DNA of 31,607 nt from a virus, in the IMG/VR virus record IMGVR_UViG_3300021347_000452, positions 1 through 31,607 of that record; one strand, 5' to 3'. The notes below the pieces were generated by a model. It worked only from the letters and a program-made list of their open reading frames with translations. It made no database searches and had not been told where the DNA came from. Every line of letters starts with the position of its first letter. Positions within the stretch are counted from its first letter, which is position 1. Below, piece by piece: positions 123 through 8,989 of this stretch. The position numbers and the translations under genes are program-made.

Positions 123-1124
123 ATGGATTTTATTGATGTAAAGTACATCAATCTGATATCCTCCAGACTTCCAAAATTTAAAAAGGTAAAACCAAACCTT
201 TATAACTTTCGGTGTCCCTGTTGCGGTGACAGTCAGAGACAGAAGAACAAGGCTAGAGGTTATCTCTACCGGGTCAAAAACAATACTAACTACAAGTGTC
301 ACAACTGTGGAATTAGTGTGTCCTTCAATAGTTTTTTAAAGGACTTAGATCCAGAGACACACAAACAATATATCTTTGAGAAGTTTAAGGACGGGAAGAC
401 AGGTAAGAACTTTGCTGCACAAACTCCTGAAGATATATTCAAAAAAGTTGAGACATCTAAACCAACTTTCAAGGAGAAAATCGTGATTGATTTACCAAGT
501 GCATTTCTTGTAAGTAGGTCTAAAGAATATCTAGAGACTAGAGCAATATTTCGTGGAGAGTTTTATTATGCTAAAAACTTCATGGAGTTTGTGAATACAA
601 TCAAACCAGATACGTTCAAGTCTACTCATTACGGCGAAGAACGAATCGTGATTCCTCTTATCAGGAATAACACACTTATAGGAGTTCAAGGGAGAGCACT
701 CTCTACGAACCCTATTAAATACTTAACCATTATGTTGGATGATGATGCCCCTAAAGTTTATGGACTTGACACAATTGATAAAAGACTGCCAGTCTATGTG
801 GTCGAAGGACCCTTTGACAGCACTTTCATCAGCAATAGTGTGGCTCTGTGTGGTAGTGACGGTGAAATTTGTGATCTTGAGAGAAGCGATAAAGTTTTTG
901 TATATGATAACGAGCCCCGTAATAAGGAAATTGTTAATCGAATTGAACGATGTATTGAACGAGGCGAAAGAGTCGTCATCTGGCCCACCAACATTATAAA
1001 GAAGGATATTAATGAATTAATTTTAGATGGTATGACTGAAAATGAAATAATGGAAATTATTAAAAATAATACTTACTTTGGTGCAATTGCTAAATTAAAA
1101 TTAAATCAATGGAAGAGATGTTGA
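123..1124 (+). CDS. 61: DNA primase, T4 gp61-like, with an element-supplied C-terminus
   Basis: This is the primase subunit of the T4-type replisome, which makes RNA primers together with the gp41 helicase. A four-cysteine zinc finger is visible (C31, C34, C59, C62). A Toprim-like core follows: VEGPFDS near residues 227-233 and an acidic YDNE near 261-264. From about residue 297 the DNA becomes markedly AT-rich, and the last 37 codons differ from a second, displaced gp61 tail found at 1738-1845. The present C-terminus was therefore probably brought in by the mobile element that follows. It still ends with a recognisable AKLK...W motif, so the primase should remain functional. The last 24 nt overlap the antisense endonuclease gene. 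Confidence 0.88.
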   Translation: MDFIDVKYINLISSRLPKFKKVKPNLYNFRCPCCGDSQRQKNKARGYLYRVKNNTNYKCHNCGISVSFNSFLKDLDPETHKQYIFEKFKDGKTGKNFAAQTPEDIFKKVETSKPTFKEKIVIDLPSAFLVSRSKEYLETRAIFRGEFYYAKNFMEFVNTIKPDTFKSTHYGEERIVIPLIRNNTLIGVQGRALSTNPIKYLTIMLDDDAPKVYGLDTIDKRLPVYVVEGPFDSTFISNSVALCGSDGEICDLERSDKVFVYDNEPRNKEIVNRIERCIERGERVVIWPTNIIKKDINELILDGMTENEIMEIIKNNTYFGAIAKLKLNQWKRC

Positions 1125-1740
1125 TATATTTGGGACACATTTAAGATGATGTTTTAAATTAGAACAAATGGTTTCTTTTTTACAAAATAAACAACAAAAT
1201 CTATCAGTTCTTTGTTTTTTAAAAAGTGGATGTTTTTCTCCCCTAATTCCAAACATTGGATTATTTGTTCCTTTCATCCTTTCTGAATGGTCTGGTCTTT
1301 TTCTTCTGGCGTGTGGTCTTGGAATACCTTTGGTTTTTTCACTTAATTTTTTATTTCTTTCTTTTGTGTGCTTTTTCCCAGAAAACCCAGATCCAAATTT
1401 ACCATTAGCAACTGCTATTGATTTATTAATATATAAAGGATTTTTATTTACATTTAATTGACGATGAATTTTTTCTTCTTTTTCATAAGCATCTTTTCTT
1501 TTTTTAAATTCCTTTATAATAATTGTTTTAAATAAATGTGGATTATTTTTAATTTCATTTTTCCAAATATTTCTATATTCTTCGGACATTACGGATCCGT
1601 GATATCCACCTTCAACTTTATCAATACTTGTTGACCCAATATAAAATGGAGGAAGATTATTTCCCTTATAAATTGTAAGGTAAACGCAATACATACCATA
1701 TCATTTATATCCTATTATTATTTATAAAAATTTATAATAT
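1011..1740. mobile_element. Homing-endonuclease element inserted in the gp61 3' end
   Basis: This insert of about 730 bp splits the ancestral primase gene at an Ile-Asn dipeptide: GATATT|AAT upstream, AAC GAT ATG downstream. It carries a recoded gp61 3' end, an antisense GIY-YIG gene and that gene's promoter/hairpin. The base composition is conspicuously AT-rich against the flanking DNA. The boundaries come from comparing the two gp61 tails and are good to a few codons. No splice-site logic or intron core was recognised, so it reads as an endonuclease cassette, not an intron. Confidence 0.7.
1101..1694 (-). CDS. GIY-YIG homing endonuclease with zinc-finger tail
   Basis: This 197-residue free-standing homing endonuclease lies antisense to the surrounding operon. 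The N-terminal GIY-YIG signature is CVYLTIY...FYIGST (residues about 3-22). It is followed by NUMOD3-type DNA-binding repeats (GKKHTKERNKKLSEKTKG near 105-122; GTNNPMFG and GEKHPLF further on). A C-terminal CLFC...H...HHLKC cluster looks like a zinc finger. Homing endonucleases of this family nick or cut a cognate allele so that repair copies the element in. Its stop codon lies inside the 3' end of gp61, and a minus-strand late promoter sits about 25 bp upstream of its start. The target is presumably an uninterrupted gp61 gene. Confidence 0.85.
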   Translation of the reverse strand: MYCVYLTIYKGNNLPPFYIGSTSIDKVEGGYHGSVMSEEYRNIWKNEIKNNPHLFKTIIIKEFKKRKDAYEKEEKIHRQLNVNKNPLYINKSIAVANGKFGSGFSGKKHTKERNKKLSEKTKGIPRPHARRKRPDHSERMKGTNNPMFGIRGEKHPLFKKQRTDRFCCLFCKKETICSNLKHHLKCVPNISTSLPLI

Positions 1741-1751: not shown

Positions 1752-1845
1752 TCTATCTGGACATAATGTTCAGAAGATAGTAGAATCAAATGTATATACT
1801 GGACTACAAGCAAAACTAAAATTCACAACCTGGAAAAAAGTATGA
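1738..1845 (+). pseudogene. Displaced original 3' end of gp61
   Basis: Read in the frame that stops at TGA 1843-1845, this stretch encodes a second primase tail ending AKLKFTTWKKV, parallel to AKLKLNQWKRC at the end of the intact gene. It begins with Asn-Asp-Met, matching the Asn-Glu-Leu at the insertion point. Its TGA overlaps the nrdA ATG (ATGA), which is the compact junction expected of an uninvaded phage operon. It is no longer joined to a start codon and is best seen as a relic of the target gene. Confidence 0.85.
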
Positions 1846-3518
1846 GTAATGGATTAAAGGTTACTAAAAGAGACGGTAACATTGAAAAATTAGATCTCGA
1901 TAAGATGCATAAGATGGTGGAAGTTGCCACTGCAGGTCTTGCTGGTGTGTCTGCAAGTCAGGTTGAGATGACTTCTGGTATTCAGTTCTATGATGGTATT
2001 ACAACTGAAGAGATTCAGGAAATCCTTATTAGAAGTGCTTCTGATCTCATTGATCTAGACCATCCTAACTATCAGTTTGTTGCTGCCAGACTCCTTCTGT
2101 TCTCTTTGAGGAAAAGATTGTTTGGTAAGATGCATGAACTACCAAATCTGACAGATCATATCACCAAACTTGCATATGATAATGTTTATGATAAGGATAT
2201 TTTTGTTAAGTATTCTCTGGAAGAGATTCTAAAGGTAGAAACTTTTATTGATCATGATCGTGATTTTATGTTTACCTATGCCGGATTACGACAGGTTGTA
2301 GATAAATACCTAGTACAAGACAGGAGCACGGGTGAGGTCTATGAGACCCCTCAGTTTATGTACATTATGATTGCATTGACAATCTTCCGTGATTATCCTA
2401 AAGAAACCAGACTATCATATGTCAAACGATACTACGACGCAATCTCCAAACACAGAATCAACATCCCAACACCAATCATGGCCGGAGTTCGGACACCACT
2501 CCGTCAATTTGCATCTTGTGTTCTCGTTGATGTTGATGACACCCTCGATAGTATCTTTAGCAGTGATATGGCTATTGGTAAATACGTCGCACAAAGGGCT
2601 GGTATCGGTATTAACGCAGGCAGAATTCGCGGCATCAATTCTAAAATTAGAGGTGGCGAGGTACAACACACAGGTGTTGTCCCCTTCCTTAAAAAGTTTG
2701 AAAGCACTGTCAGATGTTGCACACAAAACGGTATCAGAGGTGGTTCTGCTACAGTTCACTTTCCTATCTGGCACATCGAAATCGAAGACATCCTAGTTCT
2801 TAAGAACAATAAGGGTACAGAAGACAACCGAGTGAGGAAACTTGACTACTCAATCCAACTTTCAAAGATTTTCTACGAACGTTTCATTACGGATGGAGAA
2901 ATTAGCTTGTTCTCACCGCATGACGTACCGGGCTTGTATGATTCCTTTGGTACTGATAGGTTCGATGACCTATATGTTGGTTTTGAACGAGATGAGTCTA
3001 TTCCAAGAAAGACTGTCGGTGCACAAGAACTCTTTCTAGATCTTCTGAAAGAGAGAGCAGAGACTGGTCGTATCTACATTATGAATATTGACCATTGCAA
3101 TAGCCACTCTTCCTTCAAAGATAAGGTGAACATGAGTAATCTTTGTGTTGCTGGTGATACTAAAATTAAGGTGAGAATTACTACTTCCAAAAAAGTTGAT
3201 GGTAATACAATAGAAACAACTCGTCTCCCTCCTCTTGTAATTGAAATGCAACAACTTGAGGAACTTATTAAAGAAGGTCTTTCTTTAGAACTTGTAGAGG
3301 TTCTTTCTATGGATATTGATACTGCAAATCGTGAAATTGATTATCATCAAATTACTGCATTTGCTCAGACTTCACCTAAGGCAAAAGTAATGAAAATTAC
3401 TGATGAAGAAAGTGGTAAGAGTATTGTTGTTACTCCAGATCATAAAGTTTATACCAAAAATCGTGGATATGTAATGGCAAAGCATCTTAAAGAAACTGAC
3501 ATTCTAAATATTATTTGA
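1842..3518 (+). CDS. nrdA: Ribonucleotide reductase large subunit, N-terminal half fused to N-intein
   Basis: Residues 1-434 are the N-extein of class Ia NrdA, which reduces ribonucleoside diphosphates for phage DNA synthesis. They include an ATP-cone-like N-terminus and the redox cysteine C226 (E. coli C225 equivalent, in FASCVLV). They end at SNL, just before the thiyl-radical cysteine. Residues 435-558 are an N-intein. Block A begins CVAGDTKIKV and block B carries TPDHKVY with the conserved Thr and His. The ORF then stops. The partner half lies at 4244-5344 after an endonuclease gene. The start overlaps the displaced gp61 stop (ATGA). Protein trans-splicing would be needed to make an active enzyme; the extein sum is 767 residues, close to a normal NrdA length. 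Confidence 0.93.
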   Translation: MSNGLKVTKRDGNIEKLDLDKMHKMVEVATAGLAGVSASQVEMTSGIQFYDGITTEEIQEILIRSASDLIDLDHPNYQFVAARLLLFSLRKRLFGKMHELPNLTDHITKLAYDNVYDKDIFVKYSLEEILKVETFIDHDRDFMFTYAGLRQVVDKYLVQDRSTGEVYETPQFMYIMIALTIFRDYPKETRLSYVKRYYDAISKHRINIPTPIMAGVRTPLRQFASCVLVDVDDTLDSIFSSDMAIGKYVAQRAGIGINAGRIRGINSKIRGGEVQHTGVVPFLKKFESTVRCCTQNGIRGGSATVHFPIWHIEIEDILVLKNNKGTEDNRVRKLDYSIQLSKIFYERFITDGEISLFSPHDVPGLYDSFGTDRFDDLYVGFERDESIPRKTVGAQELFLDLLKERAETGRIYIMNIDHCNSHSSFKDKVNMSNLCVAGDTKIKVRITTSKKVDGNTIETTRLPPLVIEMQQLEELIKEGLSLELVEVLSMDIDTANREIDYHQITAFAQTSPKAKVMKITDEESGKSIVVTPDHKVYTKNRGYVMAKHLKETDILNII

Positions 3519-3523
3519 TTTTT

Positions 3524-3577
3524 ATAGGGAGTGTAATGTCTATATTTTATAAATAGTTATGAGATTATACTTCCTAT
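3524..3577 (+). promoter_or_regulatory. Inverted repeat enclosing a late promoter, before the intein-site endonuclease
   Basis: The arms 3524-3537 and 3564-3577 form 14 pairs (two G.U). After one mismatch there are two further pairs. The loop contains the late promoter TATAAATA at 3548-3555. The right arm ends two bases before the endonuclease ATG at 3579. Read-through transcripts from nrdA would form the hairpin next to the start codon, while transcripts begun at the late promoter would lack the left arm. This is the logic known for T4 I-TevI; here it is inferred from sequence. Confidence 0.75.
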
Positions 3578-3578
3578 T

Positions 3579-4250
3579 ATGAAAACATATATTGTGTATA
3601 AAATTACCAATAAGAAAAATAGAAAATCTTACATAGGAAAAACTGAATACTCTTTGGAGCATCGTTGGTCTCGTCATTTATCATCAGCAAGAAATGGTTC
3701 TAAATTTAGATTTCATTCGGCAATTAGAAAATATGGAGAAGATTGTTGGGAATTATCTGTGATTGAAACTTACCAAACTAAAGATGAAAACCTTATCAAT
3801 GAAAAGGAAACTCATTTTATCAAACTATTTGAGAGTTATACTAAAGGTTATAATGCCACTTCAGGTGGAACTGGTGGATGGATGCTTCCAAGATGCTCGC
3901 AGCAGGTTCAGGAACAGTGGAGAAATGATATTTCTATAAGAACTACTGGTTATAATAATCCAAACCATTCTGGATACACTGATGAAGAACTTGTAGAAGT
4001 AGGTGTAAAGTTTGCTAAAAAATATGGATTTATTGGTGGTAGAAAAAGAATAGTTGAGTTTGCTTTTAATGAATTGAATATAAAGTTTCCAAAACACTTT
4101 TCTAAAAATAGATTTGGAGGAGACTATAAAAACTTTTATAAATCTATTGAAGAACAAACTGGATTGGTGTATAATCCTTATTATAGAGACGAAACTCAAA
4201 GAAAACTTGCTAAACAACTTTTAGAACAAAATAGGAGAAAAAAATGTTAA
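3579..4250 (+). CDS. GIY-YIG homing endonuclease inside the fractured nrdA
   Basis: This 223-residue protein has a clear GIY-YIG domain: YIVYKITN...SYIGKT at residues 4-22, HRW near 28-30, and a conserved Glu in INEKETHFIKLF near 73-84. The second half has no repeat I can name; it holds Lys/Arg-rich helices and presumably binds DNA. It sits between the two halves of the split NrdA intein. Its 3' end overlaps the ATG of the C-intein ORF by 7 nt (4244-4250), so the two are probably translationally linked. It is the likely agent that moves or once moved the intein locus. It should be expressed late, from the promoter at 3548. Confidence 0.85.
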   Translation: MKTYIVYKITNKKNRKSYIGKTEYSLEHRWSRHLSSARNGSKFRFHSAIRKYGEDCWELSVIETYQTKDENLINEKETHFIKLFESYTKGYNATSGGTGGWMLPRCSQQVQEQWRNDISIRTTGYNNPNHSGYTDEELVEVGVKFAKKYGFIGGRKRIVEFAFNELNIKFPKHFSKNRFGGDYKNFYKSIEEQTGLVYNPYYRDETQRKLAKQLLEQNRRKKC

Positions 4251-5344
4251 AGATTGAATACCTTGAAGAAGAAATTCCAGTTTATGATATTACTGTAGAA
4301 GGAACACATAATTTCTTCGCAAACGATATTCTAGTTCATAATTGCCAAGAGATTACTCTGCCCACAGAACCTATTAATCATATTGATGAAGATATGCCTG
4401 GTGAGATTGCCTTGTGTATTCTTTCTGCAATCAATGTGGGTAAGATTAAATCTGATGAAGAACTAGAAGATCTTTGTGATCTTTCTGTCCGTGGTCTGGA
4501 AGAACTAATCGACTATCAGGACTATCCTGTACGGGCCGCAGAAGTAGCCACAAAGGCCCGTAGGTCACTAGGGGTAGGATTCATCGGTCTGGCACATTAC
4601 CTGGCTAAACTGGGGTATGATTACGACTCACAGGAGGCATGGGATGCAGTCCATGGATTGTCAGAATCTTTCCAGTATTATCTACTGAAATCTTCGAATC
4701 GGATTGCACAAGAGAAAGGACATTGTGAATACTTTGGTAGGACTAAGTATGCCGATGGTATTCTTCCAATTGATACATATAAAAAAGAAGTTGATGAGAT
4801 TTCATCTCAGGGGTTAGAACATGATTGGGAGGGTCTTCGGGCATCTATTAATACCTTTGGTCTACGGCACTCAACACTGTCCGCACAGATGCCATCGGAA
4901 AGTAGTTCCGTTGTGTCAAATGCAACCAATGGAATCGAACCACCTAGAGACTACTTGTCCATTAAGAAGTCAAAGAAAGGGCCTCTTAAACAAATTGTTC
5001 CCTCCTACCAGACACTGAAGAATAACTATACACTTCTGTGGGAAATGAAAGACAATACAGGATACATTAATGTTGTCTCCGTGATGCAGAAGTTCTTTGA
5101 CCAAGCAATTTCTGGTAACTGGAGTTACAATCCAGAGAACTATCCTGACAATGAAGTCCCTGTTTCTCAGATGGCACAAGATTTATTATCCACATATCGT
5201 TATGGTTGGAAAACAAGTTATTATCAAAACACATATGATATTAAAACTGATGATGTAGTAGAAGAACCAAAACAAGACCTTCAATCACTTCTTCAAGAAC
5301 TTTCTGGTGCCGAAGAGGAAGATTGCGAAAGTTGTAAAATTTGA
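4244..5344 (+). CDS. nrdA: Ribonucleotide reductase large subunit, C-intein fused to C-terminal half
   Basis: Residues 1-33 are a C-intein. Block F reads VYDITVEGTHNFFAN and block G ILVHN, with the penultimate His and terminal Asn needed for splicing. Residue 34 is the Cys+1 nucleophile. It is also NrdA's thiyl-radical cysteine (E. coli C439), in CQE with E36 matching E441. C58 in GEIALCILSA matches C462. The radical-transfer tyrosine pair is Y326-Y327, and the C-terminal redox pair is C361/C364 in the terminal DCESCKI. All catalytic residues of the C-half are present, so splicing should give working NrdA. The start overlaps the endonuclease stop. Confidence 0.93.
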   Translation: MLKIEYLEEEIPVYDITVEGTHNFFANDILVHNCQEITLPTEPINHIDEDMPGEIALCILSAINVGKIKSDEELEDLCDLSVRGLEELIDYQDYPVRAAEVATKARRSLGVGFIGLAHYLAKLGYDYDSQEAWDAVHGLSESFQYYLLKSSNRIAQEKGHCEYFGRTKYADGILPIDTYKKEVDEISSQGLEHDWEGLRASINTFGLRHSTLSAQMPSESSSVVSNATNGIEPPRDYLSIKKSKKGPLKQIVPSYQTLKNNYTLLWEMKDNTGYINVVSVMQKFFDQAISGNWSYNPENYPDNEVPVSQMAQDLLSTYRYGWKTSYYQNTYDIKTDDVVEEPKQDLQSLLQELSGAEEEDCESCKI

Positions 5345-5397: not shown

Positions 5398-6081
5398 ATG
5401 GAAGGTCGCATTTATAAAATAACAAATAAGTTAAACCAAAATTTTTATATTGGAAAAACTAAAAAAACTTTAAATCAAAGATTATCGGGTCATTTTAATT
5501 TTGCATTAAGAAGAAATAGTCAATCTCATTTTCATAGAGCAATAAGAAAATATGGTAAAGAAAATTTTATTATTGAAGAAATTGAAGTATGTGAAAATAA
5601 TTTAGGAAGTAGAGAAATGTTTTGGATTTCTAAATTAAAACCAGAATATAACCAAACTCTTGGTGGTGATGGTGGAATTCTTGGATATTCTCATACTGAA
5701 GAAACCAAAAAGATAATTTCTCAAAAGAATACTGGAAAATTTGTAGGAAATAAAAATCCATTCTACAATCAAACACATACAAAAGAACAAAAAGAAAAAT
5801 GGAGTAAAATGAGAAAAGGGCAACCATCTCCTTGTGGATTTTCTGGAAAATCACATAAGGAAGAAAGTAAATCTAAAACTTCTCAAACACTTAAAAACAA
5901 TCCAAATGTAAAAAGAACCAAAGTATTTCAATATGATATTGAAGGAAACTTTTTAAGGGAGTTCCAATCCATTAGTGATGCTTCTAAATTTGTAGGAACA
6001 ACTCCTTCTAATATAAAATATACCTGTGAAGGAAAATTTAATCATTGTAAAGGATACAGGTGGAGTTATGTTAAAATATAA
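5398..6081 (+). CDS. GIY-YIG homing endonuclease between nrdA and nrdB
   Basis: This 227-residue protein has a GIY-YIG signature at residues 4-21 (GRIYKITN...FYIGKT), a Gln-Arg-Leu helix and HFHRAIRKYG near 41-50. NUMOD3-type repeats occupy about residues 98-165 (GYSHTEETKKIIS, KNPFYNQTHTKEQ, GFSGKSHKEES). A NUMOD1-type helix-turn-helix module follows at about 186-227, containing VFQYDIEGNF...SISDASKFVG and ending YRWSYVKI. The domain order is typical of phage free-standing homing endonucleases. It fills the nrdA-nrdB intergenic gap. Its AT-rich codons contrast with those of nrdA. No obvious ribosome-binding site is visible; expression is probably from the hairpin-embedded late promoter. Confidence 0.88.
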   Translation: MEGRIYKITNKLNQNFYIGKTKKTLNQRLSGHFNFALRRNSQSHFHRAIRKYGKENFIIEEIEVCENNLGSREMFWISKLKPEYNQTLGGDGGILGYSHTEETKKIISQKNTGKFVGNKNPFYNQTHTKEQKEKWSKMRKGQPSPCGFSGKSHKEESKSKTSQTLKNNPNVKRTKVFQYDIEGNFLREFQSISDASKFVGTTPSNIKYTCEGKFNHCKGYRWSYVKI

Positions 6082-6155
6082 TAGACCTATGAACCTTGTA
6101 TTATGAAACTTAAATATTTTTTAGAGGTAAATAGAATGTGTGAGTTAAGTTCAGT

Positions 6156-6165
6156 AGAGGAGGAA
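6156..6165 (+). promoter_or_regulatory. Strong Shine-Dalgarno for nrdB
   Basis: AGAGGAGGAA lies eight bases upstream of the nrdB ATG at 6174, making it one of the few extended purine-rich ribosome sites in the window. It supports the ATG at 6174 over the in-frame ATG two codons later. Confidence 0.65.
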
Positions 6166-6173
6166 TAGTCTGA

Positions 6174-7367
6174 ATGTCAATGGAATTTAAGGTTACGGCA
6201 GTGGGTACTAATAATAGTATGAGTGCAGTGAAGGGAATGACAGTATTTAATACTGAAGTTCACGATGCCAAGAAACAACCAATGTTTTTTGGCAAACCCC
6301 TAGGAGTTCAAAGATATGATTCGTATAAGTATCCAGTCTTTGATAAACTTACAACACAGCAATTAGGATATTTCTGGAGACCAGAAGAAGTATCACTTCA
6401 AAAAGATAGAGCAGACTATCATACATTGAGAGCAGAACAGAAACATATATATACTTCTAATTTGAAGTACCAGATTATGCTTGACTCCATTCAGGGTCGT
6501 GGTCCTGGTATGGCATTCATTCCTTACTGTTCTCTTCCTGAACTAGAAGCATGTATGGAGGTATGGGGATTTATGGAGATGATCCATAGTCGTTCTTACA
6601 CATACATCATCAAAAATATCTATCCAGACCCTAGTGATATCTTTGATCATATCATTACAGATCCTAGAATTTTAGAGAGAGCAAAGAGTGTAACTGAATC
6701 CTATGATTCGTTTATCAACAGTGCTCAATCCTGGGGTAATGGTGAACTGTGGTCAACTGATTTTAGAGATACTCATGTGTCTCAGGACAGTATCAAAGAT
6801 GTAAAACGTAAACTCTTCAGAGCAGTTGCAAATGTTAACATTCTTGAGGGTATCCGCTTTTATGTTTCTTTTGCTTGTAGTTTTGCATTTGGAGAACTCA
6901 AACTTATGGAGGGAAGTGCAAAAATTATTTCTCTCATTGCCAGAGATGAAAACCAACACCTTGCAATCACCCAGAACATTTTGAACAAGTGGGCTGCAGG
7001 TGATGATCCTGAAATGAAACAGATCATGAAGGAAGAGGAAGAGTGGTTGTATGCAATGTTTGATAATGCTGTCAATGAAGAGAAGAGATGGGCAGACCAT
7101 TTGTTCAGAGATGGTAGTATGATTGGTCTCAATGATGCTCTACTTAAGAAGTATGTTGAGTGGGTTGCCAATCGTAGAATGAAGGCCATTGGTCTTAAAC
7201 CTGTCTATGATGTTGCTGCGAAGAATAATCCTCTTCCTTGGACACAACATTGGATTTCTTCTAAGGGTCTTCAAGTTGCGCCGCAGCAAACTCAAGTACA
7301 GACGTATGTGGTTGGTGGAATTAAACAAGATGTCAGTAAAGACACATTTAGCGGATTTAAACTCTGA
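6174..7367 (+). CDS. nrdB: Ribonucleotide reductase small subunit
   Basis: This is the class Ia R2 subunit (397 aa), which houses the diiron-tyrosyl radical that NrdA uses. All metal ligands are visible: D81 (DRADYH), E135 and H138 (EMIHSRSY), E225 (NILEGIRFY), E259 and H262 (ARDENQH). The radical tyrosine is Y142. The C-terminal peptide that docks on NrdA ends DVSKDTFSGFKL. A near-identical tail (DVKKDTFSGFQL) occurs again about 1.1 kb downstream at 8437-8469. The present 3' end was therefore probably supplied by the inserted endonuclease element, while the older one was displaced. Confidence 0.96.
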   Translation: MSMEFKVTAVGTNNSMSAVKGMTVFNTEVHDAKKQPMFFGKPLGVQRYDSYKYPVFDKLTTQQLGYFWRPEEVSLQKDRADYHTLRAEQKHIYTSNLKYQIMLDSIQGRGPGMAFIPYCSLPELEACMEVWGFMEMIHSRSYTYIIKNIYPDPSDIFDHIITDPRILERAKSVTESYDSFINSAQSWGNGELWSTDFRDTHVSQDSIKDVKRKLFRAVANVNILEGIRFYVSFACSFAFGELKLMEGSAKIISLIARDENQHLAITQNILNKWAAGDDPEMKQIMKEEEEWLYAMFDNAVNEEKRWADHLFRDGSMIGLNDALLKKYVEWVANRRMKAIGLKPVYDVAAKNNPLPWTQHWISSKGLQVAPQQTQVQTYVVGGIKQDVSKDTFSGFKL

Positions 7368-7371
7368 TTGA

Positions 7372-7425
7372 TTTTAAGACTGAAATGTAGTATTATATAA
7401 ATAATATTAGAGTTCAGTCTTAAAA
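7372..7425 (+). promoter_or_regulatory. Long hairpin with a late promoter at its apex, covering the endonuclease start
   Basis: TTTTAAGACTGAA (7372-7384) pairs perfectly with TTCAGTCTTAAAA (7413-7425). Inside it 7388-7395 pairs with 7402-7409, leaving the loop TATAAA. The late promoter TATAAATA (7396-7403) sits on that loop. The right arm includes the A of the endonuclease ATG (7425), so read-through RNA would bury the start codon. A TTGATT (7368-7373), 17-bp spacer, TATTAT (7391-7396) sigma-70-like match overlaps. Confidence 0.78.
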
Positions 7426-8045
7426 TGAATAACTATATTCTTTACTACTACTTAAGGGAGGACTTTAGTTCTCCCTTTTATGTTGGATATGGAAGACCAA
7501 GAAGAATAAACGCAAGACACTCTAGAAGAAATGGTGCTGAAATTTTACCACCTAGAGAGAGGAGATGGATTGTAAAATCTGGTTTATCTAAAGAAGAAGC
7601 AATAGAACTTGAGATAAAACATATAACACTCTGGAAAAGAGAATGTGATGGTGGAGTTTTGTTAAATCAAAATCTTGGTGGGGAAGGAAAACCTGGAGGA
7701 CAAAAAACAAAAGGTTTTAGTGGTAGAAAGCACACTGAAGAAGCAAAGAAAAAAATAAGTGAAAAAGTAGCAGGTAAAAATAATCCAAGTTATGGTGTTC
7801 CTTGTAATGAAGAACGAAAAAGAAAAATAAGCGAAAGAGCAAAAGAAAGATTTGCCGAAGGTTTTAAATCTCCATCATCAGTAACTTATCTTCTAACAAG
7901 TCCTTCTGAAGAAAAATTTGAGGTATTTGGAGAACTTAAAAAGTTTTGCAGAGAAAATAAAATATCTTATGCAACGATGCACGCAGCAATTCTTTATGAT
8001 AGAAAAGGTCCGAGAAGAAATGGATGGTCGATTGAGAAAGTTTAG
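7425..8045 (+). CDS. GIY-YIG homing endonuclease downstream of nrdB
   Basis: This 206-residue protein has a divergent GIY-YIG motif (YILYYYL...FYVGYG, residues about 4-23), then RHSRR. A Glu-rich helix (LSKEEAIELEIKHI near 55-68) probably carries the catalytic glutamate. NUMOD3-like repeats follow (GFSGRKHTEEAKKKIS, GKNNPSYGVP). A C-terminal NUMOD1-like helix-turn-helix runs from VFGELKKFCRENKIS to RRNGWSIEKV. It begins inside the right arm of the hairpin and overlaps the next ORF by 26 nt. It probably targets intact nrdB near its 3' end. Confidence 0.85.
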   Translation: MNNYILYYYLREDFSSPFYVGYGRPRRINARHSRRNGAEILPPRERRWIVKSGLSKEEAIELEIKHITLWKRECDGGVLLNQNLGGEGKPGGQKTKGFSGRKHTEEAKKKISEKVAGKNNPSYGVPCNEERKRKISERAKERFAEGFKSPSSVTYLLTSPSEEKFEVFGELKKFCRENKISYATMHAAILYDRKGPRRNGWSIEKV

Positions 8046-8472
8046 ATTGTCATTGCCCGAAGATGATTGTGTGGTTAAACTCCAAGAGTATTGTAAGTTT
8101 TCTCTTACTCTATTAAAAATTCCTGTAGTATCTAAACCATTATGTATTGATGCAAACTGTCATAATAATGTAAATCATTATGTAGAAACTTATGGTGGAG
8201 AAAAAATAAGTGGATATTATTTAATCACAGATGTTGATGATGAAACTTATGGATGTGCGATATATCATAGTATTTGGAAAAATACTTATGGAGACTTGAT
8301 AGACATAACACCATTTGATGATGGAAGAGAATATAATATGTTTTCAGTGTTGGATGATACAGAATATTACTCTGGTGTTTCTTATGATGGAAAAGATTAT
8401 AAAATATTAGAACCAGGCCTTAATGTTGTTCAAGATGTCAAAAAAGATACCTTCTCGGGATTCCAACTCTGA
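8020..8472 (+). CDS. Hypothetical protein whose reading frame runs into the displaced NrdB tail
   Basis: An ORF of up to 150 aa opens at ATG 8020, inside the endonuclease 3' end; GTG or TTG starts just after 8045 are also possible. The body has CHNNVNHYVETYGG near 47-60 and AIYHSIWKNTYGDLIDITP further on. From memory this pattern resembles an unnamed bacterial family with a conserved C-H-x-N-V and H-x-x-W...G-x-x-x-D-x-T-P. The last 16 codons are the relic of ancestral nrdB, so the protein is a chance or retained fusion to an NrdB docking peptide. Function unknown. Confidence 0.55.
   Translation: MDGRLRKFRLSLPEDDCVVKLQEYCKFSLTLLKIPVVSKPLCIDANCHNNVNHYVETYGGEKISGYYLITDVDDETYGCAIYHSIWKNTYGDLIDITPFDDGREYNMFSVLDDTEYYSGVSYDGKDYKILEPGLNVVQDVKKDTFSGFQL
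8425..8472 (+). pseudogene. Displaced original 3' end of nrdB
   Basis: These codons encode VVQDVKKDTFSGFQL before the stop, parallel to the intact NrdB end KQDVSKDTFSGFKL. The nucleotide match is high around CAAGATGTCA. The start codon of the next small gene (8435) lies inside this relic, which may be why it has been kept. Confidence 0.8.
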
Positions 8473-8560
8473 TGACCTTCAAAAAATAATCAAATACTAT
8501 AAGAAAATAAAAGCCAAAAAGTTAGACGACTACATATTTCAGGACCATGAAGAAAAGTGA
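8435..8560 (+). CDS. Small Lys-rich protein overlapping the nrdB tail
   Basis: This is a 41-residue ORF: ATG 8435, stop TGA 8558-8560. It begins MSKKIPSRDSNSDDLQKIIK and is followed immediately by the GTG of the SegE-like gene at 8561. It is read in a different frame from the displaced nrdB tail. The gapless junction suggests a genuine gene whose start was embedded in nrdB before the endonuclease insertion. It is basic, probably helical, with no recognised domain. It is short, so confidence is moderate. Confidence 0.5.
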   Translation: MSKKIPSRDSNSDDLQKIIKYYKKIKAKKLDDYIFQDHEEK

Positions 8561-8989
8561 GTGTGTGACTACGAGAACCCCTGGTTGTTTAAAGGTAAAC
8601 CCTTTACCAGTGATCTTATTGGGGATAACTTTGGTTTTGTTTATCTCATTACCAATAAGACCACCGGTAGAAAATATATCGGAAGGAAATACTTGTGGTC
8701 ATTCAGAACCCCTAAAGGAAAGAAGCGCAAGGTAAAACAAGAATCTGATTGGAAAAAATACTATGGTTCATGTCCTGAATTAAAAGAGGATGTGAACCTT
8801 TTTGGTAAGAATAAATTCTCTAGAGAGATACTTTCCTTACACGATACAAAGGGTCAGACTAACTTTGAGGAGACACGTCAGTTGTTTCTGAACGAGGTTC
8901 TGACAGAGAAACTTGACGATGGCACTTCAAAGTATTATAATGCACAAATACTTAACAGATATTACAAAAAAGATTACTGGAAAGACTAA
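8561..8989 (+). CDS. SegE-like GIY-YIG protein
   Basis: This 142-residue protein starts with GTG at 8561. It has a GIY-YIG core GFVYLITNKTTGRKYIGRKY (residues about 27-46), then WKKYYGSCPELKEDV and a Glu in FEETRQLFLNEVLTEKL near 104-120. It closely resembles the SegE-type GIY-YIG proteins widespread next to nucleotide metabolism genes in T4-like phages. Unlike the four invader endonucleases it lacks NUMOD repeats, has no hairpin-promoter leader, and shares the base composition of the core genes. It therefore looks like a resident gene. Confidence 0.78.
   Translation: MCDYENPWLFKGKPFTSDLIGDNFGFVYLITNKTTGRKYIGRKYLWSFRTPKGKKRKVKQESDWKKYYGSCPELKEDVNLFGKNKFSREILSLHDTKGQTNFEETRQLFLNEVLTEKLDDGTSKYYNAQILNRYYKKDYWKD

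What the first reader, a model, noticed from the sequence alone, without database searches (positions are those of the whole stretch)
7330..8472. The same 3'-end capture occurred independently at nrdB
NrdB ends KQDVSKDTFSGFKL at 7367, and an almost identical tail, VQDVKKDTFSGFQL, lies at 8425-8472 after a GIY-YIG gene and a second ORF. Two separate genes in one operon thus show the same architecture, pointing to a general strategy of free-standing GIY-YIG cassettes, not an accident.
Basis: partly seen in the sequence, partly recalled or inferred. Interest (0 to 1): 0.8.

Follow-up and report, generated by a model that had tools for sequence, protein, structure and literature searches.

The report
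Endonuclease cassette splitting overlapping phage genes
In this cyanophage a selfish DNA-cutting gene sits between nrdB and the gene that used to overlap its end, and the second "nrdB tail" is that overlap, duplicated so that nrdB keeps its last codons and the next gene keeps its start.

Summary
In detail: a second copy of the nrdB 3' end (8431-8472; 32/42 nt identical, 5 of 7 codon differences silent) lies after a GIY-YIG gene (7425-8045) and an ORF. Its meaning differs from "3'-end capture as a strategy". In many relatives without the cassette the nrdB tail is also, in the +1 frame, the start of a small downstream gene. The second tail is 41/42 identical to such an empty-site nrdB end (L148) and starts the same 41-aa gene (8435-8560). 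The +1 ORF is present in 21/39 cassette-free nrdB ends, 0/47 first tails of cassette-bearing phages and 28/32 second tails; in second tails the +1 frame is kept while the nrdB frame decays. The last ~87 nt of nrdB switch at ~7280 from the L178 lineage to the cassette-bearing L010 lineage, as co-conversion in homing would leave. The nrdA/nrdB junction follows the same rule: GIY-YIG gene 5398-6081 is followed by a relic of the nrdA end carrying nrdB's ribosome-binding site. The window's two other GIY-YIG genes show no such repeat. Only here, among relatives read, is the tail in frame with the ORF (CAA replaces a TAA stop).

The parts
6174..7367 (+). nrdB, class Ia ribonucleotide reductase small subunit, complete
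   Evidence: Pfam Ribonuc_red_sm E 1.5e-57; 397 aa
7281..7367 (+). donor-type (converted) 3' end of nrdB; breakpoint at about 7280
   Evidence: informative sites L178:L010 are 189:18 left and 3:20 right of 7280, Fisher p 1.5e-15 at the best split, not corrected for choosing it
7326..7367 (+). left copy of the nrdB tail: real end of nrdB; +1 frame no longer leads into a gene
7370..7427 (+). RNA hairpin with late-promoter-like TATAAATA (7396-7403) in the loop, 3' arm abutting the GIY-YIG start codon
   Evidence: fold -26.2 kcal/mol, z -6.4; 98% of stem cells paired and 4 pairs with two-sided changes in 20 relatives
7425..8045 (+). GIY-YIG/NUMOD3 free-standing homing endonuclease gene (GIY3)
   Evidence: NUMOD3 E 2.3e-12; homing endonuclease phrog_314 E 8e-15; invariant Y19/G21, R27, E63, N81 among 48 relatives
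8023..8472 (+). cargo ORF; relatives end at about 136 aa, here extended by the old nrdB tail because CAA (8431) replaces the usual stop
   Evidence: 42 distinct homologues; weak match to phrog_37148, function unknown
8431..8472 (+). right copy of the nrdB tail: the recipient's old nrdB end
   Evidence: 41/42 identical to the nrdB end of cassette-free L148
8435..8560 (+). small overlapping gene (41 aa, MSKKIPSRDSNSDD...) whose start codon lies inside the right tail
   Evidence: same gene in L147/L148/L185 and S-B43 starts inside nrdB
8561..8989 (+). SegE-like GIY-YIG protein gene, conserved right neighbour
   Evidence: Pfam SegE_GIY-YIG E 1.4e-54
5398..6081 (+). second, unrelated GIY-YIG gene (GIY2) inserted at the nrdA/nrdB overlap
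   Evidence: GIY-YIG E 3.8e-9, NUMOD1 E 9e-9; nrdA and nrdB overlap in 32 of 47 GIY2-free junctions
6142..6163 (+). relic of the old nrdA 3' end with nrdB's Shine-Dalgarno (AGGAGG)
   Evidence: identical 22-mer in nrdA ends of GIY2-free relatives (L013, L043, L050); nrdA tail retained upstream of nrdB in 34 of 46 GIY2-bearing junctions

Best explanation
A mobile cassette (hairpin-controlled GIY-YIG homing endonuclease plus a cargo ORF) entered the junction of two overlapping genes, nrdB and a small downstream gene whose start codon lies 38 nt before the nrdB stop. Proposed steps: (1) the endonuclease cuts a cassette-free nrdB 3' end (inferred; cleavage not tested); (2) the break is repaired from a cassette-bearing phage, with the left junction inside nrdB, so the last ~87 nt of nrdB came with the cassette (shown as a mosaic breakpoint); (3) the right junction falls at the old nrdB tail, where a donor that already carries a second tail offers homology, so the recipient's own tail stays to the right (shown: 41/42 identity to an empty-site tail); (4) the two copies then divide the labour: the left serves only as the nrdB end, the right only as the start of the next gene (shown by frame decay). 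In this window the crossover also removed the cargo ORF's stop, so it reads on through the old tail by accident. The nrdA/nrdB junction was split in the same way by another GIY-YIG gene; there the kept piece carries nrdB's ribosome-binding site.
For: Empty sites: in S-B43, SynMITS9220M01 and S-RS29 a +1 ORF starts inside the nrdB end; L147/L148/L185 have the same downstream gene as the window, continuous with nrdB. Right tail: 41/42 identical to L148 against 32/42 to the window's own left tail, and 8431-8902 is 92% identical to L148 without a gap. +1 ORF: 21/39 cassette-free nrdB ends, 0/47 cassette-bearing left ends, 28/32 right copies; Fisher p 1e-9 for the first two. In 11 distinct right copies of the MLPK type six of eight variable columns are silent in the +1 frame and two (one codon) give S/L, while the nrdB frame changes T/A, N/D, S/A, G/R, Q/K and loses its stop in 3 of 11. 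The right copy begins at or within 4 nt of the start codon; unrelated sequence precedes it in L013, L099, L104. Breakpoint at 7280. nrdA/nrdB. Hairpin plus TATAAATA ahead of the gene, conserved with compensatory changes, as reported for T4 I-TevI, segB and Aeh1 mobE (PMC2988022).
Against: Cleavage and homing are not shown. Four distinct right copies (L045, L075, L087/L088, L090) keep a nrdB tail although no gene starts in it, so retention is not always explained by an overlap; there it looks like an unselected remnant. A population-wide rise of identity at the nrdB end of cassette-bearing phages was not found, so co-conversion is visible only for this recent mosaic. Sequences are related, so the Fisher test overstates independence, and a left end followed by an insert cannot by construction carry a long +1 ORF; the stronger evidence is the stops and lost SQDS residues within the left copies. 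Donor and recipient are proxies, not the actual parents.
Confidence: 0.87

Rival explanations
1. One reading: the cassette carries a spare 3' end of its target gene as a general strategy, so that insertion never destroys the target.
For: The left end of nrdB does travel with the cassette in this window, and four right copies keep a tail without an overlapping gene.
Against: The spare is on the other side: the copy outside the cassette is the recipient's. No such repeat at the window's two other GIY-YIG genes or convincingly at related genes in isolates MA01, S-CREM2, B23, S-SRM01. Frame decay shows what the copy is kept for.
Confidence: 0.08
2. Functional mimicry: the cargo ORF acquired the NrdB C-terminal peptide, which in class Ia reductases docks on NrdA, so the fusion binds or inhibits NrdA.
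For: The NrdB C-terminus is the R1-docking peptide in class Ia enzymes (general knowledge); the fused tail is intact (VQDVKKDTFSGFQL).
Against: No other of 42 distinct homologues has the tail; even the nearest cassette relative (L010) has a stop there. The tail DNA is explained by the recipient's overlap.
Confidence: 0.03
3. Illegitimate tandem duplication of the nrdB end inside one genome, unrelated to the endonuclease.
For: Direct repeats flanking an insert can arise this way.
Against: Left and right tails have different nearest relatives (L190/L010 type against L148), and both tails recur around the same cassette in dozens of contigs.
Confidence: 0.02

Closest known systems
Free-standing (intronless) homing endonucleases of T4-like phages (SegA-SegG, MobA-MobE)
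   Same: Free-standing GIY-YIG gene between two essential-region genes, hairpin and late promoter ahead of it, co-conversion-like mosaic next to it (PMC2988022)
   Different: Cutting not shown. The junction was an overlapping gene pair and the overlap is present twice; the review does not use the word duplication at all
MobE between nrdA and nrdB of T4 / Aeh1
   Same: Endonuclease gene at the nrdA/nrdB junction; Aeh1 mobE has the hairpin/late-promoter control (PMC2988022)
   Different: MobE is HNH, not GIY-YIG; in T4 nrdB has its own promoter downstream; in Aeh1 mobE breaks nrdA itself
SegF/SegG-type insertions where downstream promoters lie inside the endonuclease gene
   Same: The downstream gene's expression signals have to survive the insertion (PMC2988022)
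   Different: Here the signals survive by duplication of the upstream gene's end, not by lying within the endonuclease gene
Fractured genes: split inteins with an endonuclease between the halves (Dassa et al. 2009, from memory)
   Same: Describes the nrdA interruption at 3150-4342 of this window
   Different: A different device: the two nrdA parts are joined by trans-splicing and nothing is duplicated

Membership tests
GIY-YIG homing endonuclease | GIY-YIG catalytic domain with conserved Tyr, Arg, Glu, Asn | tested here: inconclusive
   Pfam GIY-YIG not reached by GIY3, NUMOD3 E 2.3e-12; phrog_314 homing endonuclease E 8e-15; residues at the expected places are invariant in 48 relatives, assignment by eye
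Intronless homing element | Endonuclease gene present or absent at a fixed site among close relatives | tested here: met
   Cassette-free sites in L147/L148/L185, S-B43 and others; cassette at the nrdB end in dozens of contigs
Intronless homing element | Co-conversion of flanking sequence | tested here: met
   One mosaic breakpoint at 7280 on the left; not seen as a population-wide trend
Intronless homing element | Cleaves the cassette-free allele and not its own | not testable with these tools
   needs an enzyme assay
T4-type endonuclease regulation | Late promoter inside a hairpin that covers the translation start | tested here: met
   TATAAATA and hairpin ahead of 7425, 5398, 3579 and, more weakly, 1694 on the minus strand; promoter activity not tested
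Mobile group I intron or intein at nrdB | Intron or intein splicing of nrdB | tested here: not met
   nrdB is one uninterrupted frame with no intein domain hit; no Rfam scan was run

The most novel reading that the evidence does not exclude
Homing cassettes of these phages are built to enter overlapping gene pairs: the duplicated overlap serves both as the recombination arm for the next homing event and as a dose-neutral repair of both genes, so that overlaps are preferred, low-cost entry sites.
Probability: 0.2. Interest if true: 0.65.

Novelty: new variant of a known kind. Interest (0 to 1): 0.46.

Why it matters
Phage genes often overlap, so an insertion at a junction should break one partner. 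These loci show, twice in one operon and in many contigs, how an endonuclease cassette gets in without cost: the overlap ends up on both sides and each copy then loses one of its two reading frames. That gives natural experiments in which an overlapping pair is pulled apart, and it warns annotators that a "captured tail" can be the start of an unannotated small gene.

Tried and rejected
Population-wide co-conversion signal at the nrdB end: none. Simple syn/nonsyn counts over all right copies: not discriminating because several downstream gene types are mixed; restricted to one type they are. Structure prediction of the cargo ORF: mean pLDDT 34, unusable, so no fold search was made. The cargo ORF in isolates: only one weak hit, in a human-gut phage contig. 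The same layout around related GIY-YIG genes in cultured phages: not convincing; MA01 has only a 13-nt match. A first hairpin count with the stem one column off gave a false negative and was redone. Literature searches found no description of an overlap duplicated around a homing endonuclease gene, in the open-access library only.

Full report
What is there. The window is a 31.6-kb virus record of a T4-like cyanophage; its nrdB region matches Synechococcus and other cyanophage records. nrdB (6174-7367) is followed by a GIY-YIG/NUMOD3 gene (7425-8045), an ORF that overlaps its end and stops at 8472, and a SegE-like gene (8561-8989). The ORF's last residues, VQDVKKDTFSGFQL, repeat those of NrdB, KQDVSKDTFSGFKL. 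The DNA repeat (7326-7368 with 8431-8473) is far above shuffles, with 32/42 identity and mostly silent codon differences.

The empty site explains the repeat. In cassette-free phages (S-B43, SynMITS9220M01, S-RS29) and in the contigs L147, L148, L185 the nrdB end is read in two frames: as the NrdB C-terminus and, from an ATG 38 nt before the nrdB stop, as the start of a small gene. In L148 that gene is MSKKIPSQDSNSDFIQKLIKYYKKIKAKKLDDYIFQDYEEK. The window's right tail starts MSKKIPSRDSNSDDLQKIIKYYKKIKAKKLDDYIFQDHEEK at 8435-8560, and its 42 nt differ from L148's nrdB end at one position. From 8431 to 8902 the window is 92% identical to L148 without a gap, while L148's last 44 nt of nrdB align with both window copies.

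Relatives show the same division of labour. Two searches of IMG/VR brought in over 80 contig stretches with this GIY-YIG gene, nearly all directly after nrdB and most followed by the ORF. In most of these the right tail begins at the ATG of the next gene, often as TAATG, so that the ORF's stop and the next start overlap. A +1 ORF of at least 35 codons is present in 21 of 39 distinct cassette-free nrdB ends, 0 of 47 cassette-bearing left ends and 28 of 32 right copies. The 0 of 47 is partly built in, since an insert follows the tail; but within the 42 nt themselves many left copies carry +1 stops or have lost the SQDS residues. In 11 distinct right copies of the commonest type, six of eight variable columns are silent in the +1 frame and two give S/L in one codon, whereas the nrdB frame changes five residues and loses its stop in three sequences. 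The right tail is therefore kept as the start of the next gene, not as a tail of NrdB.

Exceptions. Four distinct right copies (L045, L075, L087/L088, L090) keep a nrdB tail with no gene starting in it. I read them as remnants of the same event that selection has no reason to keep. They show that the second copy comes from the insertion process, and that the overlap decides whether it lasts.

How it got in. nrdB of the window follows L178, which has no nrdB-end cassette, at 189 of 207 informative sites up to 7280, and the cassette-bearing L010 at 20 of 23 after it (p 1.5e-15 at the best split, uncorrected). The hairpin spacer and the GIY-YIG gene continue the match to L010. To the right, the window returns to the cassette-free type at the old tail. 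This is what repair of a break from a cassette-bearing donor would leave. The cut itself is inferred. L178, L010 and L148 are proxies for the parents. Across all cassette-bearing phages no general rise of identity at the nrdB end was found, so I claim co-conversion only for this event.

Why the tail is fused to the ORF here. In L010 the codon at the junction is TAA; in the window it is CAA, as in L148's nrdB. The crossover exchanged the stop for the recipient's CAA and the ORF reads on for 13 residues. Forty-two distinct homologues lack the tail. A role in binding NrdA is possible in principle and unsupported.

The second case in the operon. nrdA and nrdB overlap in 32 of 47 junctions without the other GIY-YIG gene, with nrdB's GAGGAGG and GTG start inside the nrdA end. 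With that gene present, 34 of 46 junctions keep an nrdA tail ahead of nrdB. The window keeps only 6142-6163, including AGGAGG, then changes to another nrdB start. The two other GIY-YIG genes of the window show no repeat: one sits between the halves of a split nrdA intein, the other between the primase gene and nrdA on the minus strand. Overlap at the entry site, not GIY-YIG identity, is the common factor.

Regulation. A hairpin with TATAAATA in the loop precedes the gene at 7425 (z -6.4) and those at 5398 and 3579 (z -4.2, -3.2), and a weaker one the minus-strand gene. Four of the six TATAAATA sites of the window lie just ahead of its four GIY-YIG genes. In 20 relatives the nrdB-end stem pairs in 98% of cells with four pairs changed on both sides. 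This is the control described for T4 I-TevI and segB and Aeh1 mobE (PMC2988022).

Comparison. Function-wise this is an intronless-homing element; membership is met for site polymorphism, flanking conversion and regulatory layout, and untested for cutting. What I did not find described, in an open-access library only, is the duplicated overlap. I rate it a new variant of a known kind, of moderate interest.

Noticed in passing
3150-4342: nrdA carries a split intein: N-half at the end of the 1842-3518 frame, C-half at the start of 4244-5344, with a GIY-YIG gene (3579-4250) between; L090 and L098 have the same arrangement.
   Followed up: partly
1101-1694 (minus strand): Fourth GIY-YIG-like gene on the minus strand between the primase gene and nrdA, also with TATAAATA and a hairpin ahead of it.
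   Followed up: partly
8023-8430: Cargo ORF of about 136 aa conserved at 74-91% identity beside the endonuclease, even where the endonuclease is replaced by another (L019, L030); function unknown, weak match to phrog_37148.
   Followed up: partly
8435-8560: Small gene that starts inside the nrdB end; unannotated in S-B43, annotated in SynMITS9220M01. Different downstream genes share the N-terminus M.K..SQDS because nrdB dictates it.
   Followed up: partly
8561-8989: SegE-like GIY-YIG protein gene that many cyanophage records name NAD synthetase (PHROG 447), apparently a propagated misannotation.
   Followed up: no
L013 3053-3644, L045 5003-5536, L075 3829-4398: Further genes lie between the cargo ORF and the right tail, so the site between the two tails behaves as a variable island.
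   Followed up: no
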